A stretch of DNA of 57,844 nucleotides from Rhodothermus sp. GTDB taxonomy: Bacteria > Bacteroidota > Rhodothermia > Rhodothermales > Rhodothermaceae. Positions within the stretch are counted from its first letter, which is position 1, and each line of letters starts with the position of its first letter. Positions 4,275 to 13,960 of this stretch are shown here, piece after piece. Location: contig JAUZRN010000053.1 in assembly GCA_030950375.1 (NCBI GenBank), positions 1 through 57,844 on the forward strand. Direction: 5' to 3'. A program made the translations under genes and the position numbers. Under the pieces are notes generated by a model. The model was not told the DNA's origin. It made no database searches and was given only the letters and a program-made list of their open reading frames with translations.

Positions 4275-4620
4275 GACTGATCTGCCATTGCTCAAGTACT
4301 TCGGCACGTCCTTGCGCGATGACGGTGGCTGTTGAGCACCTGGCAAACTGCTTTTACGATTCCGTGATGAATTCACTCCAGATGCTTATGGCGCGCACGC
4401 GGGATACGTCCGGCCTGGCCAAGGTTTCTGCATGGCAATACCTCTACGTAACCCAGCAGATGTCGGAGTAGCTGATTCCCTGCAACCCCGGGCGTCACAG
4501 AACAAAGCCATCTCAGGGAGGCTTATGGTCAGGATGCCGAATTGGACGGGGCGTCCTTTCCGCCGAGCGGGACGTGCTACCGTTTGCGTATGTAAGGGTT
4601 GATTGTGGAATGAAAATAAC
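4275..4620. other. intergenic stretch with no supported gene
   Basis: It lies between the glycosyltransferase stop and the tRNA terminator. Only short chance frames occur, the longest plausible being a 35-codon frame starting near 4363 without a ribosome-binding site. No repeat or RNA structure was recognised. Confidence 0.5.
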
Positions 4621-4646
4621 AAAGCCGCCCTCGCGGGTGCGGCTTT
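4621..4646 (-). terminator. Rho-independent terminator after tRNA-Pro
   Basis: Perfect 8-bp stem AAAGCCGC/GCGGCTTT (4621-4628 with 4639-4646) and a GC-rich loop. On the minus strand it is followed by a T-rich run (GTTATTTTC). It sits four bases beyond the 3' end of the tRNA. Confidence 0.8.
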
Positions 4647-4650
4647 ATAG

Positions 4651-4724
<74 letters not shown>

Positions 4725-4736
4725 AATTGCGAAGGC

Positions 4737-4744
4737 CAAATATA
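4737..4744 (-). promoter_or_regulatory. Bacteroidota-type -7 element for tRNA-Pro
   Basis: The minus strand reads TATATTTG, an exact match to the Bacteroidota consensus TAnnTTTG. It ends about 12 bases before the tRNA 5' end. No clear -33 TTG lies at the usual distance. Confidence 0.45.
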
Positions 4745-4803
4745 CACTGAAAACGGTTGGAGTTCCAGTTCTACGCACGCAGCTGGTGGGAGTTCAAGGT
4801 TAA

Positions 4804-7969: not shown

Positions 7970-8770
7970 ATGAAGTTACCCCTTTTTCTGGTTGACGCGT
8001 TTGCTGAACGACCTTTCACGGGTAATCCGGCCGCGGTATGCTTGCTGGACCGCCCGCGCTCGGAAAGCTGGATGCAGGCGGTGGCGGCCGAAATGAACTG
8101 GTCTGAGACAGCCTTTTTATTGCCGAAAGGTGAAGGGTTCGCCCTTCGATGGTTTACACCCGTTCAGGAAGTTGAACTTTGCGGTCATGCGACGCTGGCC
8201 AGCGCGCATGTGCTGTGGGAGATTGAATGTCTGGAGCCTGACGAACCAGCGGTCTTTTTCACGAAAAGTGGACGCCTGAAGGCCTGGAAAACAAAGGATG
8301 GTACGATCTGGATGGACTTTCCGGCCGAGCCACCTGTGGCCTGTGAGCCGCCTCTTGCGTTGCTCCAGGGGTTACAATCGGTGCCCATTCGGTATGTGGG
8401 ACGCAACCGGATGGATTACCTGGTGTTGCTGGACCGAGAAGCTACTGTGCGCAGGTTAAAACCCGACCTGGAGCGTCTGCAGCAATTGGATATGCGGGGG
8501 TTGATCGTGACAGCACCGGCCGAAGAGGTATCGGCCGACTTCGTCTCTCGCTTTTTTGCCCCACGCGTGGGAGTGCCCGAAGATCCGGTTACCGGTTCGG
8601 CGCATTGTTGCCTGGGTCCGTTCTGGGCCGAGCGGTTAGGACGTACGCGTCTGTGCGGATTTCAGGTGTCGCCACGGGGTGGCCGCATTGAAGTGGAGGC
8701 GCGTGGGAGTCGGGTGCATCTGGGTGGCCGTGCTGTTACGGTGCTGCAGGGCAAGCTGCGGGCGGGGTAG
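7970..8770 (+). CDS. PhzF-family isomerase/epimerase-like protein (266 aa)
   Basis: Two-lobed DapF-like fold. The start VDAFAERPFTGNPAAVC (residues 8-24), the catalytic Glu46 in NWSETAF, ELCGHATLASAH (69-80) and EDPVTGSAH (204-212) are the family signatures. No phenazine genes are nearby, so it is likely one of the many PhzF homologues of unknown substrate (YddE-like). It ends one base before the convergent stop of the large exported protein. Confidence 0.9.
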   Translation: MKLPLFLVDAFAERPFTGNPAAVCLLDRPRSESWMQAVAAEMNWSETAFLLPKGEGFALRWFTPVQEVELCGHATLASAHVLWEIECLEPDEPAVFFTKSGRLKAWKTKDGTIWMDFPAEPPVACEPPLALLQGLQSVPIRYVGRNRMDYLVLLDREATVRRLKPDLERLQQLDMRGLIVTAPAEEVSADFVSRFFAPRVGVPEDPVTGSAHCCLGPFWAERLGRTRLCGFQVSPRGGRIEVEARGSRVHLGGRAVTVLQGKLRAG

Positions 8771-8771
8771 G

Positions 8772-11700
8772 TTACCACCCTGGCACGAGCTGGGCACCCA
8801 GATGCCATCCTTTGTAGGGGCGCTGGAATGGATAAACGTAGAACAATTCCAGCACCATAGCCCCCAGAATGTTGAAGCGCGTCGAGATGCCCGTGCTGAA
8901 AACCGGCACGCGGTCCCCTGTGTCGCGCTTGAACTCCAACTTGGGCAGGTCGCCTTTCGACCAGGCAACTCCTGCATCGGCGAAGAAGGATAGCTCAGTA
9001 GGCAGATAGGGGAAGTTGAACAGCCCGAAACGTTCGGTGCCGAACAGCGGAATGCGTAGCTCTGCGCTGGCTACTGCAACGTGTGTGCCCACCAGTCGTG
9101 CTACTTCAGCACAGAGGTTACTGTCGGCAGTGGAAGGGGTGCATTCGTCCGGTTCCAGCGAATAGAAGCTGTAGCCGCGCACAAATGTCAGCGTACTACC
9201 ATATCCCAGGTATTCCTGGGCGAAAGAAAGCCGGTCCGTTCTCTGGGGTTGCGCGCCATAGTTGCCCACGTGGGTCAGGCGTACGGCGAAGGTGAGCGGA
9301 CGGAAGAAGAAGTACTTTCGACCGTCAATCAGCACCTGCACAAAGCGTTCGGTGCCCACCAGCGGGGCTACCTGGAGCCGATAGCGTGTGCCACGTACCG
9401 GTGAGGTGAAGCCAAAGAATGAAAAGTCGCCCACAAAAGCCCCGGAAGCCTGGAAAAAGTAGATAGGAGCTGGTGCTGGAAGGTTCTGGGTGGCACGCCG
9501 GTAGCCGGCTCCGTAGAGATAGTAAATTTCGGCGTCGTAATCGAAGCCATAGCGCTGGAAGCCCAGTGTTAGTTCAATACGCTGGGTGGTGTTGAGGGGA
9601 TAGTATCCCAGGAGGGAGGCCTCATTGATATAGATTCGCTGCAGCAGTTGGATGTAGCAGGGTACCTGTAGTCCCGTAGCTGGGTCCTGACAGACTGGGT
9701 CCAGATAGGCATAGCCGAACAGAAGAGGAATATGGCTGGCCATCAGGCCGTAGTTCAGCCGGCCTCCCTGATTGATATAGACCACCTGACCGCCAATGTC
9801 TTTAAAGGTACCATTGGCCTGTGCCACAATGGCCAGTTGCTGATCGCCCAGCATATCGCTGAAGAAGAAAGCCACCCCACCGGCTATCAGGGTCCCGAAT
9901 GGACCGCCTACCGTGGCTCCAAACGTCGGGGGCGCGATATAGTCAAGCTGGAGGCGCCGGCGATAGGGTTGCGGTCGCAGCGCCAACTCGTCTGGTAGGC
10001 CGGTCAGCGGATCGTTCAGGTAGCTGCTGACCAGTCCCTGCGTGGGGGGTTGCAGGGGGGGCAGCACACCAGCCGAAGCGATGCCGACGTCGGTGCCAGG
10101 CTCGACCAGCTCACCCTCCAGTTCCTTGGGTTCCAGGGAGAAGACCAGATATTTGTTATCGGTAAAGACGGAAAACATCATGCGGCCGTTCTGGGCGGCC
10201 ACGCTCATGGCGGGTGAGATACTCGTGATGCCGCTGACGCCGGTTTGCAACTTCGTGAGGCGATAGACGGCGCCCGTGTTCAGGTCCATTCGGTAGATGT
10301 CTTTGAAGCCATCGTGATTGGAAATGAAATACAGGCTGCGGCCGTCGGGTGAAAACTGTGGGTTAATCTGTTGTCCGTGCCGGAAGGGGCGAAGCACCCG
10401 TACGTTGCCGGTTTCCAGGTCCAGCAGGGCTAGCCGCTCGTGTCCGTAGCGCAGGATTTCGAAGTCGGTGCCGTCCGGCCCACGATCCGACACGAAAGCA
10501 AGGGTGCGGCCGTCGGGAGACCAGGCCGGTTGTAGATCGGCATAGCGGTCATCGGTGAGCTTCCGGACTTGGTTCGTTTCCAGGTCCAGCAGATACAGAT
10601 CGCTGATGCCACCGGAAAGTCCCGAAAAGGCGATGGTTCGGCCGTCGGGGGACCAGGCCAGGTTATGAATGGCGCCAATGCCTTCGACCGCGATGCGCCG
10701 CTCCAGCTTGCCTTTGCGTAGGTTCCAGATAGCGATTTCGTTATTGCCGCGTGCGAACGTGATAAAGGCAAAGCGCTGGCCATCCGGCGACCAGGAGCCC
10801 GAGGAATTGATGAAGCGGATGGCATCGAAGTGAGGATCACTGGCGCTGCTGCTCAGGCGACGAAGCACACGGCCTGTTTCAGCATCGGCGACAAACAGGT
10901 CGATCGTAAACAGATCGCGTTCCGAGAGAAACGCTACGTAGCGTCCGTCCGGACTGAGCGCGGGGGCCAGGTTGATTTCGCCCGCGTCGATGTCGGGAGC
11001 CAGTACTTTACGGCCCGCTTTTTCAGGTGGCGTGCGGCCTTCCAGCAGGGGGAGGTAGGTGTTTTTGATAGCCTGGATCCATTCGCGCGAGAGAGAGTCG
11101 GGCGTGATCCCCAGCGTGATGGCAATCGCCGTATCGACCCCCACGATGCCTCCCAGTTTGTACAGCTCCGTAACGGCCTGGTCACCGTATTTGCCCCCAA
11201 TGTAGGCCAGGTAGGCCTGTCCGTAGCGGTAGGGGAAATAGCGCAGGTTACGAGTGAGCTGCTGAATGGTGGGGAGATCGTCCCGCAGTGCCGCATCGCG
11301 CAACCACATGGCGGTATGCGGATCGTGGCGGCCCACCGACAGGTATTCGGCCATTCCCTCCACCAGCCACAGTGGCAGCAAGGCCAGATTAAAGCGACTC
11401 AGGCTGTCGGAGCGGTTCAGGGCAATGTCGTACTGGAAAGAGTGGACCAGCTCGTGGCCAAGTACGTGGTCGTTTTCTCGATAGATGCCCGTAAAGGGCA
11501 TGATCACCCGTTCTTTGATGGCTTCGGTTACCCCGCCGGTCCCCTCGCCGATTGCGCCGCTAATGGCATTGGTCTGATGAAAATCGGCGTCGTCTGCATA
11601 AAAGAGAATGGGCTTACGCTCGCCGAACTCATGCAGAAATGTACGGCTATGGCGCTGATACCAGCGTTCGGCCATTCGGGCCGCATCCCGCACCACAATT

Positions 11701-11861
11701 TCTTCCTCCGGGTAATAATAAATCTCAAAGTGCGGCGTGCGCAGCACGTGCCAGTTAAAGGATTCGTACTGCACCTTATTGCGGCCGAAATATTGAGCCC
11801 AGGCAGAAAGACTCCAGCCCGTTAGCAGGAGTAGCAGGCCGGCGGTTCGACAGGCACGCAT
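8772..11861 (-). CDS. exported HExxH peptidase / TolB-like propeller / outer-membrane barrel fusion (1029 aa)
   Basis: A signal peptide (residues 1-22, cleavage after WA) is followed by three parts. Residues about 30-290 form a peptidase-MA-like domain with zinc motif HELVH (136-140) and a downstream acidic ligand Glu168 in LVEGMAEY. Residues about 290-600 hold at least five PD40 propeller repeats, each with SPDGR/SPDGQ followed by an aromatic strand. Residues about 650-1029 are rich in alternating aromatic strands and Gly turns and end in a terminal Trp, like a BamA/D15-type barrel. I infer an outer-membrane protein displaying a metallopeptidase and propeller; related three-part proteins are annotated in Bacteroidota only as WD40-like. 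It stands alone on its strand. Confidence 0.8.
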   Translation of the reverse strand: MRACRTAGLLLLLTGWSLSAWAQYFGRNKVQYESFNWHVLRTPHFEIYYYPEEEIVVRDAARMAERWYQRHSRTFLHEFGERKPILFYADDADFHQTNAISGAIGEGTGGVTEAIKERVIMPFTGIYRENDHVLGHELVHSFQYDIALNRSDSLSRFNLALLPLWLVEGMAEYLSVGRHDPHTAMWLRDAALRDDLPTIQQLTRNLRYFPYRYGQAYLAYIGGKYGDQAVTELYKLGGIVGVDTAIAITLGITPDSLSREWIQAIKNTYLPLLEGRTPPEKAGRKVLAPDIDAGEINLAPALSPDGRYVAFLSERDLFTIDLFVADAETGRVLRRLSSSASDPHFDAIRFINSSGSWSPDGQRFAFITFARGNNEIAIWNLRKGKLERRIAVEGIGAIHNLAWSPDGRTIAFSGLSGGISDLYLLDLETNQVRKLTDDRYADLQPAWSPDGRTLAFVSDRGPDGTDFEILRYGHERLALLDLETGNVRVLRPFRHGQQINPQFSPDGRSLYFISNHDGFKDIYRMDLNTGAVYRLTKLQTGVSGITSISPAMSVAAQNGRMMFSVFTDNKYLVFSLEPKELEGELVEPGTDVGIASAGVLPPLQPPTQGLVSSYLNDPLTGLPDELALRPQPYRRRLQLDYIAPPTFGATVGGPFGTLIAGGVAFFFSDMLGDQQLAIVAQANGTFKDIGGQVVYINQGGRLNYGLMASHIPLLFGYAYLDPVCQDPATGLQVPCYIQLLQRIYINEASLLGYYPLNTTQRIELTLGFQRYGFDYDAEIYYLYGAGYRRATQNLPAPAPIYFFQASGAFVGDFSFFGFTSPVRGTRYRLQVAPLVGTERFVQVLIDGRKYFFFRPLTFAVRLTHVGNYGAQPQRTDRLSFAQEYLGYGSTLTFVRGYSFYSLEPDECTPSTADSNLCAEVARLVGTHVAVASAELRIPLFGTERFGLFNFPYLPTELSFFADAGVAWSKGDLPKLEFKRDTGDRVPVFSTGISTRFNILGAMVLELFYVYPFQRPYKGWHLGAQLVPGW

Positions 11862-12112: not shown

Positions 12113-13960
12113 ATGGGAGACTATCGGGTTCGGGCAAAGATTTTTGTCAGCACCATCGGGTTGCTGCTGGGGTTGCTGCTGTTGCGGTTGGCCCAGATGC
12201 AGCTCTGGCAGAATGAGCTGTATGTGGGGGAGTCGCGCAGCAATGCGGTGCGCGAACAGCGTGTGATGCCAGCTCGCGGTGCGATCTATGATCGCAACGG
12301 TGTGCTACTGGTCGACAATGCCCCGGCCTATTCGCTCCTTATTACGCCTCGCTACTTTGATCCGCGCAATATCCCGTTGCTTGCCCGGTTGCTGGAAGTG
12401 CCCGACTCGGTCGTGGCCAACCGCCTGGCACAGGCGCGTGCCTGGAGCGCTTATCGACCCAGCCGGGTGTTTACCAATCTGCCGTTTGAGACTTTCAGCC
12501 GGGTTGTTGAAAACCTGTACCGTCTGCCCGGTGTCCAGTATGAAATTGACCAGCGCCGTCGCTATCACACGCCGGCACGTGCCGCGCATGCGCTGGGGTA
12601 TGTGCGGGAGATTACGCGCGCGGAGCTGGAGCAGCTTCGGGAGGCGGGCTATACCCTGGGCGATCGCATTGGTAAGGCCGGTCTGGAGAAGTTCTACGAA
12701 ACGGCGCTGCGTGGGGTGCCGGGACGCGCCTTTAAACTGGTCAACATCCATGGCCAGGAAATCAAACCTTACCGCGACGGCGCTGAAGATGTGCCTCCCC
12801 TCAGTGGTTATGATCTGCATCTTGGACTGGATTATCGCGTACAGGCGTTGGCCGAATCGCTTTTTGTAGGCAAGCGCGGGGCGGCCGTAGCTCTTGATCC
12901 GAATAATGGTGAGATTATTGCTCTGGTGAGCATGCCGGACTTCGATCCGGAGTTGCTCTCAGGCTCCATTAACCCGGAAACCTGGCGATATCTAACCACA
13001 AGTCCAGAAAAGCCTTTGTTTAACCGGGCGACAATGAGCGGAGTCCCGCCGGGTTCGACCTGGAAGCCGTTCATGGCGCTGGTCGGGTTACAGGAGGGGG
13101 TCATTACGGCACGCAGCACGATTTACTGTCCGGGCGGTTACCTGCTGGGCAACCGGCTTTTCCGTTGTCATGGAGGCGCGCACGGATCACTCGACGTGCG
13201 CGAGGCGATCCGACTTTCCTGCAACACCTTTTTCTTCACGGTCATGATGCGTCTCGACGTGAACACGCTCCATCGCTGGGCTAACCGCTTTGGATTTGGC
13301 CGCGTGATTCCTATGGATATTGCCGAACAGCATCCGGGACTGATTCCCGACTCGTCCTACTACGATCGTCGCTATCCGAATGGCTGGACAGCCGGCTACA
13401 CGATCAACCTGGGCATCGGACAGGGCGACATGACCGTTACGCCCATGCAGCTGGCGCGCTACGTGGCAGCTATCGCCAACGGTGGCACGCTATATCCCCC
13501 GCACCTGGTGCGCGAACTGGTGCATCCAGAAACCGGCGAGGTGTTAAAGCCGCAGCTTCCCCCACCCGAGCGCATCCCTATCCGGCCAGCATATTTTCAA
13601 GTAGTGCGTGAGGGGATGCGGCGGGTGATGGAAGAGGGTACAGCCCGGTGGGTGCGGATTCCGGGTATTCCCAGCGGAGGCAAAACCGGTACGGCCCAGG
13701 CGCCCGGCGGACGGAAGGATCATTCACTCTTTATCATGTTTGCCCCCTATGACACCCCCCGGATTGCCATTGCGGTGCTGGTAGAAAATGCTGGCTTCGG
13801 AGCTACGGTGGCTGCACCGATCGCCAGCCTGATGGCCGAACTGTACCTGACCGGTAAGGTGGCGACAACACCGCAGCGTCGCTACATGCTTGAGCACGTG
13901 TTGCGCCAGCGAAGTCAAGCCCTGGAGGAGGCTGCTATCACACAGGCTTCCGTGCAATAG
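12113..13960 (+). CDS. mrdA: penicillin-binding protein 2, peptidoglycan transpeptidase (615 aa)
   Basis: Class B PBP that cross-links lateral-wall peptidoglycan with RodA. One N-terminal membrane anchor (residues about 8-28), the PBP dimerisation region with RGAIYDRNG (about 55-63), then the transpeptidase domain: active-site Ser315 in PPGSTWKP, the SCN motif in RLSCNTFFF (about 370) and KTGTAQ near 525. Length fits the family. It is the first gene of a same-strand series and RodA starts four bases after its stop, the classic mrdA-rodA pair. mreBCD is not in the window. Confidence 0.95.
   Translation: MGDYRVRAKIFVSTIGLLLGLLLLRLAQMQLWQNELYVGESRSNAVREQRVMPARGAIYDRNGVLLVDNAPAYSLLITPRYFDPRNIPLLARLLEVPDSVVANRLAQARAWSAYRPSRVFTNLPFETFSRVVENLYRLPGVQYEIDQRRRYHTPARAAHALGYVREITRAELEQLREAGYTLGDRIGKAGLEKFYETALRGVPGRAFKLVNIHGQEIKPYRDGAEDVPPLSGYDLHLGLDYRVQALAESLFVGKRGAAVALDPNNGEIIALVSMPDFDPELLSGSINPETWRYLTTSPEKPLFNRATMSGVPPGSTWKPFMALVGLQEGVITARSTIYCPGGYLLGNRLFRCHGGAHGSLDVREAIRLSCNTFFFTVMMRLDVNTLHRWANRFGFGRVIPMDIAEQHPGLIPDSSYYDRRYPNGWTAGYTINLGIGQGDMTVTPMQLARYVAAIANGGTLYPPHLVRELVHPETGEVLKPQLPPPERIPIRPAYFQVVREGMRRVMEEGTARWVRIPGIPSGGKTGTAQAPGGRKDHSLFIMFAPYDTPRIAIAVLVENAGFGATVAAPIASLMAELYLTGKVATTPQRRYMLEHVLRQRSQALEEAAITQASVQ

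What the first reader, a model, noticed from the sequence alone, without database searches (positions are those of the whole stretch)
8772..11861. Peptidase, propeller and outer-membrane barrel in one polypeptide
The HELVH motif with Glu168, five SPDGR-type repeats and a terminal barrel lie in one signal-peptide protein. This would anchor a zinc peptidase and a binding propeller on one barrel. The orientation (surface or periplasm) and the target are unknown.
Basis: partly seen in the sequence, partly recalled or inferred. Interest (0 to 1): 0.5.

Follow-up and report, generated by a model that had tools for sequence, protein, structure and literature searches.

The report
Metallopeptidase anchored by outer-membrane barrel
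A Rhodothermus protein joins a zinc-peptidase domain and a six-bladed propeller to a BamA-type outer-membrane barrel in one chain; such proteins are widespread and uncharacterised, and one branch of the family keeps the same build but has lost the peptidase active site.

Summary
Window 8772-11861 (minus strand) encodes a 1029-aa protein: apparent signal peptide, gluzincin-type peptidase domain (H136-E137-x-x-H140, E168), six-bladed TolB-like propeller, 16-strand Omp85/BamA-type barrel with the VRGY lid motif. AlphaFold on 45 homologs gives pLDDT 86.6, pTM 0.83. Fold matches are TolB (Z 25.9) for the propeller, BamA (Z 24.1) for the barrel, and gluzincins (M30 lugdulysin, collagenases, M1) for the peptidase domain. 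It is not unique: 99 of 99 Rhodothermales genomes and 117 of 198 Bacteroidota genomes have relatives. Propeller-plus-Omp85 proteins were described in 2014 as 'WD40-Omp85'; I found no print mention of the peptidase domain. New here: 103 of 113 homologs keep both histidines, both glutamates and a predicted catalytic tyrosine (Y211); 10 of 113 lack the intact site and that tyrosine, and form one clade of same-architecture pseudopeptidases. Most likely it is a periplasm-facing, outer-membrane-anchored envelope protease, comparable in layout to PlpD and in role perhaps to BepA. Orientation, activity and substrate are inferred.

The parts
8772..11861 (-). whole gene, 1029 aa, single chain: signal peptide - gluzincin domain - TolB-like propeller - Omp85 barrel
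11796..11861 (-). residues 1-22, apparent type I signal peptide (AWA|Q)
   Evidence: sequence reading; pLDDT below 50 for 1-22
11013..11795 (-). residues 23-283, gluzincin-type peptidase domain
11442..11456 (-). HELVH, residues 136-140: two predicted zinc histidines and catalytic Glu137, on helix 127-148
11358..11360 (-). Glu168 of the ExxA motif EGMA, predicted third zinc ligand, on helix 164-176
11229..11231 (-). Tyr211, predicted catalytic tyrosine; present in 103 of 103 homologs with an intact site, absent in 10 of 10 without
10131..11012 (-). residues 284-577, six-bladed TolB-like propeller with five PD40/SPDG repeats
9951..10130 (-). residues 578-637, linker, poorly conserved
8775..9950 (-). 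residues 638-1029, 16-strand Omp85/BamA-type barrel
9171..9182 (-). VRGY, residues 894-897, Omp85 hallmark in the long loop 869-926 between strands 11 and 12
8970..8984 (-). F960-x-D962-x-G964, strand 13 motif; F960 and D962 invariant in 45 of 45
12113..13960 (+). divergent neighbour: class B PBP2-type transpeptidase, adjacent in 53 of 56 Rhodothermales genomes that have both genes

Best explanation
It is an outer-membrane-anchored, periplasm-facing zinc metallopeptidase for envelope proteins. Shown by sequence and prediction: one chain with a gluzincin domain, a TolB-like six-bladed propeller and a 16-strand Omp85-type barrel. Inferred: Sec export, insertion of the barrel by BAM, the N-terminal domains staying in the periplasm under the barrel as in PlpD, the propeller capturing protein or peptide substrates, and the gluzincin cutting them. 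The probable job is quality control or processing of proteins in the outer-membrane/cell-wall space, comparable in role to BepA. The target is unknown; in Rhodothermales the gene is paired with cell-wall synthesis genes.
For: Model pLDDT 86.6, pTM 0.83. Barrel: BamA and Sam50 chains, best 8xnb_A Z 24.1, 308 residues, model 639-1029; by sequence profile the barrel matched only four distinct PDB sequences, all BamA, best E 1.6e-7. Propeller: TolB Z 25.9. Peptidase domain modelled alone: M30 lugdulysin Z 16.4 (238 residues, rmsd 6.5), collagenase 7wss Z 16.3 (229 residues, rmsd 3.5), then M1/LTA4H about 13. E137 to Y211 is 74 residues; lugdulysin's mutated pair E242/Y315 (title of 7bb9) is 73 apart, and the profile alignment puts Y211 on a Tyr of 7wss. 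103 of 113 homologs keep H136/E137/H140/E168 and all 103 keep Y211. The peptidase domain is the most conserved part: 62% mean identity to the query against 56% propeller and 46% barrel. A Salinibacter plasmid copy keeps peptidase plus propeller and has no barrel, so the barrel behaves as a removable anchor. Topology: in the predicted 16 strands the long loops fall on the odd turns (by eye), which puts both barrel ends in the periplasm; PlpD's N-terminal enzyme domain was shown to be periplasmic (PMC11116518, passages read). Cell-wall link: beside PBP2 in 53 of 56 genomes; in two loci of family f20 it directly follows a class A PBP.
Against: No experiment, no metal or substrate evidence, no ligand distances. 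Orientation rests on topology and analogy. The PBP pairing may be inherited order: no PBP was found among the flanking genes scanned beside the type-1 genes of L166, L167, L168, L055 and L057 (one or two flanking genes each). The pseudopeptidase clade (10 of 113) shows that the architecture can be kept without catalysis, so proteolysis may not be the whole function. Pfam's Peptidase_MA_2 does not match the query itself. The best Foldseek E for the peptidase domain is only 8.2e-4.
Confidence: 0.55

Rival explanations
1. The barrel is a working Omp85 machine (insertase or translocase) and propeller plus peptidase are its fused accessory subunits: a BamA-BamB-like fusion with a built-in proofreading protease that removes stalled substrates.
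For: Omp85 hallmark [VILM]RG[FYW] in 94 of 103 active-site-intact and 10 of 10 pseudopeptidase members, F-x-D motif in 101 of 103 and 10 of 10; BamA is the best barrel match; Heinz and Lithgow proposed a BamA-BamB-like role for WD40-Omp85 (PMC4104836, section read); the pseudopeptidase clade keeps the architecture without the active site.
Against: No POTRA domain listed; the barrel is the less conserved part; a barrel-less homolog exists; [quoted passage not shown]
Confidence: 0.25
2. Surface protease: the N-terminal domains are exported through or beside the barrel (type Vd-like) and act on outside proteins for nutrition or attack.
For: The fold matches include collagenases and lugdulysin, secreted enzymes by recall; type Vd export was once proposed for PlpD (passages).
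Against: PlpD's domain is periplasmic; a folded six-bladed propeller and a peptidase domain are large for a 16-strand barrel; presence in 99 of 99 sampled Rhodothermales genomes and pairing with PBP genes suit a housekeeping role.
Confidence: 0.15
3. Binding scaffold: the peptidase fold serves as a protein-binding domain and catalysis is dispensable, as in the pseudopeptidase clade.
For: 10 of 113 homologs lack the intact site and form one clade with SH-aLRT 100; in 8 of these 10 genomes the barrel-profile scan found no second full-length member.
Against: In this protein and 102 others all catalytic residues including Y211 are kept, which argues for selection on catalysis here.
Confidence: 0.05

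Closest known systems
WD40-Omp85 subfamily (Heinz and Lithgow 2014, PMC4104836)
   Same: N-terminal TolB-like propeller, Omp85 barrel, no POTRA
   Different: the section read names no peptidase domain for it; whether its members carry one could not be checked, as the supplementary tables were not available
PlpD / patatin-Omp85 (PMC11116518, passages read)
   Same: enzyme domain N-terminal to an Omp85 barrel; its measured periplasmic topology is the best guide to orientation
   Different: patatin lipase and a POTRA domain instead of gluzincin and propeller; PlpD dimerises
'Metallo' Omp85 subfamily (PMC4104836)
   Same: Omp85 barrel with a metal-enzyme domain
   Different: defined by PF00149, which Pfam names Metallophos, a phosphoesterase family by recall, not a peptidase; no PF00149 match listed for this protein
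M30 lugdulysin, M9 collagenases, M1 aminopeptidases
   Same: gluzincin fold; for 7wss also HExxH, downstream Glu and Tyr in register; for lugdulysin a similarly spaced Glu/Tyr pair
   Different: 9-17% identity in the structural alignments; not barrel-anchored (recall)
TolB
   Same: propeller fold and repeats
   Different: TIGR02800 143 bits against cut-off 343; different partner domains
BepA / YcaL / LoiP (M48), from PMC13067283 passages
   Same: zinc metalloproteases acting on outer-membrane proteins: the role proposed here
   Different: separate proteins, YcaL and LoiP being lipoproteins; no barrel or propeller by recall

Membership tests
Omp85/TpsB superfamily | 16-strand barrel related to BamA/FhaC | tested here: met
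   Omp85 38.0 bits over cut-off 24; BamA Z 24.1; 16 strands counted by eye, taking 786-794 as part of a hairpin loop
Omp85/TpsB superfamily | VRGF/Y lid motif and F-x-D strand motif (hallmarks recalled) | tested here: met
   VRGY 894-897, FADAG 960-964 (one search gives F960, D962, G964); family counts
Omp85/TpsB superfamily | POTRA domain(s), usual but not universal | tested here: not met
   no POTRA family listed for the query or among the 25 commonest families of 45 homologs; the 2014 paper accepts members without POTRA
WD40-Omp85 subfamily | TolB-like propeller N-terminal to an Omp85 barrel | tested here: met
WD40-Omp85 subfamily | clusters with the published member sequences | not testable with these tools
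   member lists are in supplementary tables that were not available
Gluzincin metallopeptidases (clan MA) | HExxH plus Glu in a downstream ExxA motif | tested here: met
   H136/E137/H140/E168, A171; the ExxA criterion is given in PMC6414381 (passages)
Gluzincin metallopeptidases (clan MA) | fold | tested here: met
   49 of the 50 rows shown are M30, M9 or M1-type peptidases, Z 12.6-16.4; the other is a TFIID complex chain, Z 12.8; the best Foldseek E is only 8.2e-4
Gluzincin metallopeptidases (clan MA) | bound zinc and proteolysis | not testable with these tools
   needs protein
Pfam Peptidase_MA_2 (PF13485) | score over 32.4 bits | tested here: not met
   query not listed up to E 1; 20 of 45 homologs match at E 0.1 or better; two paralogs pass the cut-off
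Pfam BSP (PF04450) | score over 23.8 bits | tested here: not met
   16.9 bits, although a relative is annotated 'basic secretory protein-like protein'
TolB (Tol-Pal) | TIGR02800 equivalog cut-off 343 bits | tested here: not met
   143 bits
Type Vd / PlpD | patatin domain and POTRA | tested here: not met
   neither listed

The most novel reading that the evidence does not exclude
A single-chain outer-membrane machine in which a BamA-type barrel carries its own substrate-binding propeller and proofreading zinc protease, with a sister clade in which the protease has become a pseudoenzyme and only the scaffold or assembly role is left: a covalent merger of BamA, a TolB/BamB-like propeller and a BepA-like protease, outside the known BAM set.
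Probability: 0.2. Interest if true: 0.8.

Novelty: new variant of a known kind. Interest (0 to 1): 0.5.

Why it matters
Two uncharacterised Omp85 branches, 'WD40-like' and 'metalloprotease', are still cited as open (PMC11116518). The published 'metalloprotease' one rests on PF00149, which Pfam calls Metallophos, so proteins like this one may be the genuine metallopeptidase-Omp85s. A natural series of active enzymes, a barrel-less enzyme and same-build pseudoenzymes gives a direct handle on what enzyme, propeller and barrel each do, and on whether Omp85 barrels serve as plain anchors or as working machines.

Tried and rejected
Rejected: chance HExxH (45 of 45 conserved); a TolB ortholog; a non-Omp85 porin-type barrel (the barrel profile matches only BamA in the PDB). 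A look-alike paper, on the F. psychrophilum elastase FP0506 (PMC6414381, outline and passages), concerns a 296-aa lipoprotein; 'barrel' and 'propeller' do not occur in its text. The 2025 Bacteroidota BAM structures (PMC12611786, PMC12578637; passages) show no such subunit in the passages read: BamI has a propeller but is a separate subunit of the mainly extracellular complex, and 'peptidase' does not occur in either text. Some VIA rows begin at model residues 31-103 while covering the barrel, which could mean that the model packs the peptidase at the barrel's periplasmic mouth; no coordinates were available, so this is not used. Literature searches for a peptidase-propeller-Omp85 protein; no listed title or abstract start described one (open-licence papers only). 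A conserved neighbour beside the pseudopeptidase gene in 5 of 6 loci looks like a metallo-beta-lactamase-fold hydrolase by reading; it gave no functional lead. The N-terminally cut loci L079-L108 were not used to judge active sites where the N-terminus was missing; full-length stretches were fetched instead for many of them.

Limits: homologs were collected by similarity to this protein or its barrel, so 103 of 113 is not a census. The 113 come from 148 reading frames that matched both profiles, after dropping incomplete peptidase domains and frames with identical last 300 residues; the separately added query row (104 of 114 printed there) is the window's own L001 again and is left out. In one search several of the ten pseudopeptidase rows keep a single Glu at one of the four positions, so 'lost the site' means that none keeps either histidine. 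The tree is a quick search of 92 rows with midpoint root. The adjacency count used coordinates typed.

Full report
What is there. The minus-strand gene 8772-11861 encodes 1029 aa. It stands alone: a convergent gene ends 1 bp away at 8770 (PhzF-like by reading), and a PBP2-type gene starts divergently at 12113 (Transpeptidase and PBP_dimer domains), followed by a rodA-like gene (reading only).

Three domains. Pfam finds five PD40 repeats (113.7 bits) and Omp85 (38.0 bits), both over their cut-offs, and only weak peptidase hits (BSP 16.9 bits, under its cut-off of 23.8). Homologs fill the gap: Peptidase_MA_2 matches 20 of 45 at E 0.1 or better and passes its cut-off in two paralogs of the same genome, which also pass for PD40 and Omp85. 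AlphaFold with 45 sequences gives mean pLDDT 86.6 and pTM 0.83. The VIA alignment gives TolB for about residues 281-584 (Z up to 25.9), with the designed propeller Pizza6 (six-bladed by recall) at Z 22.6 over 246 residues, and BamA for 639-1029 (8xnb_A Z 24.1, 308 residues, rmsd 3.8). The peptidase domain modelled alone (pLDDT 82.7, pTM 0.83) matches M30 lugdulysin (Z 16.4, rmsd 6.5), Vibrio-type collagenase 7wss (Z 16.3, 229 residues, rmsd 3.5), clostridial collagenases (about 13-15) and M1/LTA4H enzymes (about 13); Foldseek alone is modest (best E 8.2e-4).

Active site. H136, E137, H140, E168 and Y211 are invariant in 45 of 45. H136/H140 sit on helix 127-148 and E168 on helix 164-176. The E137-Y211 spacing of 74 compares with 73 for E242/Y315 of lugdulysin, the pair mutated in 7bb9 (title), and Y211 aligns with a tyrosine of 7wss in the profile alignment. 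In clostridial collagenase G a second-His-to-Glu spacing of 28, as here, and a similarly placed Tyr are recalled, not looked up.

A pseudopeptidase clade. A scan of 99 Bacteroidota genomes with the barrel profile (69 of 99 hit at E 1e-5) brought up ten 1092-1204-aa proteins (L109-L118) that match the peptidase-domain profile (E 1.8e-28 to 1.5e-40) and the barrel profile (E 3.4e-25 to 6.4e-37) but have no HExxH. Over all collected homologs, 103 of 113 distinct proteins keep H136/E137/H140/E168 and all 103 keep Y211; the ten keep neither histidine and none has Y211. They form one side of a branch with SH-aLRT 100 in a quick 92-row tree. In 8 of the 10 genomes the barrel scan shows no other full-length member, only partial hits in frames of about 800 aa or nothing; two genomes (G130, G156) also hold an active type-1 protein. 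Pfam barely sees these proteins: of seven scanned, PD40 was found in three and a weak Peptidase_MA_2 in one.

Family shape. The tree has this protein's clade (type 1), two paralog clades (own genome C2 and C19) and the pseudopeptidase clade. The own genome also has two more distant HExxH-PD40 proteins, at C11 and C16, for which Pfam listed no Omp85 domain. Matches at E 1e-20 or better occur in 99 of 99 relatives and at E 1e-40 or better in 117 of 198 phylum genomes. Full-length type-1 proteins also occur in MAGs labelled Gemmatimonadetes, Eisenbacteria, Bacteroidales and Saprospiraceae. Conservation falls from peptidase (62%) to propeller (56%) to barrel (46%). A Salinibacter ruber plasmid gene, the single hit among 72,556 plasmid records, encodes the peptidase and propeller at 54% identity without a barrel; the next gene is not a barrel.

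Neighbourhood. Of 60 Rhodothermales genomes, 56 have both a type-1 gene and a PBP2 match; in 53 the two lie within 853 bp. Exceptions: G027 and G040 (different contigs) and G043 (354 kb apart). G008, G022 and G032 have no type-1 gene, and G010 no PBP2 match at E 1e-60. In two f20 loci the gene directly follows a class A PBP on the same strand. This is a lead to cell-wall growth, not proof.

Orientation. Taking 786-794 as part of a hairpin loop, the model has 16 strands with the VRGY loop (869-926) between strands 11 and 12, as in BamA (recalled). By eye the odd turns add up to about 122 residues and the even turns to about 40, as expected if the odd ones are extracellular; the domains ahead of strand 1 are then periplasmic. 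PlpD, the best-studied enzyme-Omp85 fusion known to me, has its enzyme in the periplasm (PMC11116518, passages).

Prior knowledge. Heinz and Lithgow (PMC4104836; section 10 read) defined WD40-Omp85, likened it to a BamA-BamB fusion, and defined a 'Metallo' subfamily by PF00149, which Pfam names Metallophos. The PlpD paper lists both as not well characterised. Nine searches listed no paper described as being about a peptidase-propeller-Omp85 protein; preprints and most subscription papers were not covered.

Verdict. The anatomy is near certain (about 0.95), an intact and probably active gluzincin site likely (about 0.85), periplasmic orientation likely (about 0.75), and a role in envelope protein quality control or processing a reasoned guess (about 0.4). 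It is a new variant of a known kind. The pseudopeptidase clade and the barrel-less form make the roles of enzyme, propeller and barrel separately testable.

Noticed in passing
L109-L118: Ten Bacteroidota proteins with the same three-domain build and no intact active site: a single pseudopeptidase clade.
   Followed up: partly
L078:2914-4815 (NZ_CP030365.1, Salinibacter ruber plasmid pSR116): Barrel-less 633-aa homolog with intact HELVH and EGMAEY; the next gene reads as a serine carboxypeptidase-like protein (GGPGS, GESYG).
   Followed up: partly
own genome C11:110483-111874 and C16:8767-10443 (L011, L012): Two distant HExxH plus PD40 paralogs of 981 and 969 aa with no Omp85 match in Pfam; their C-terminal parts were not classified.
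   Followed up: no
L049:2801-9043: Two family members in tandem on one contig, the second cut by the contig end.
   Followed up: no
L164, L165: Type-1 gene directly after a class A penicillin-binding protein on the same strand in family f20.
   Followed up: partly
L169, L170, L171, L172, L174: A metallo-beta-lactamase-fold hydrolase (by reading) lies close to the pseudopeptidase gene in 5 of 6 loci examined.
   Followed up: no
window 4386-4778 minus: ORF of 130 aa covering tRNA-Pro(cgg) at 4650-4724; probably spurious.
   Followed up: yes
PMC4104836, PF00149: The 'metalloprotease' Omp85 subfamily of 2014 rests on a family that Pfam names Metallophos; the label 'metalloprotease' was repeated in 2024 (PMC11116518).
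   Followed up: partly
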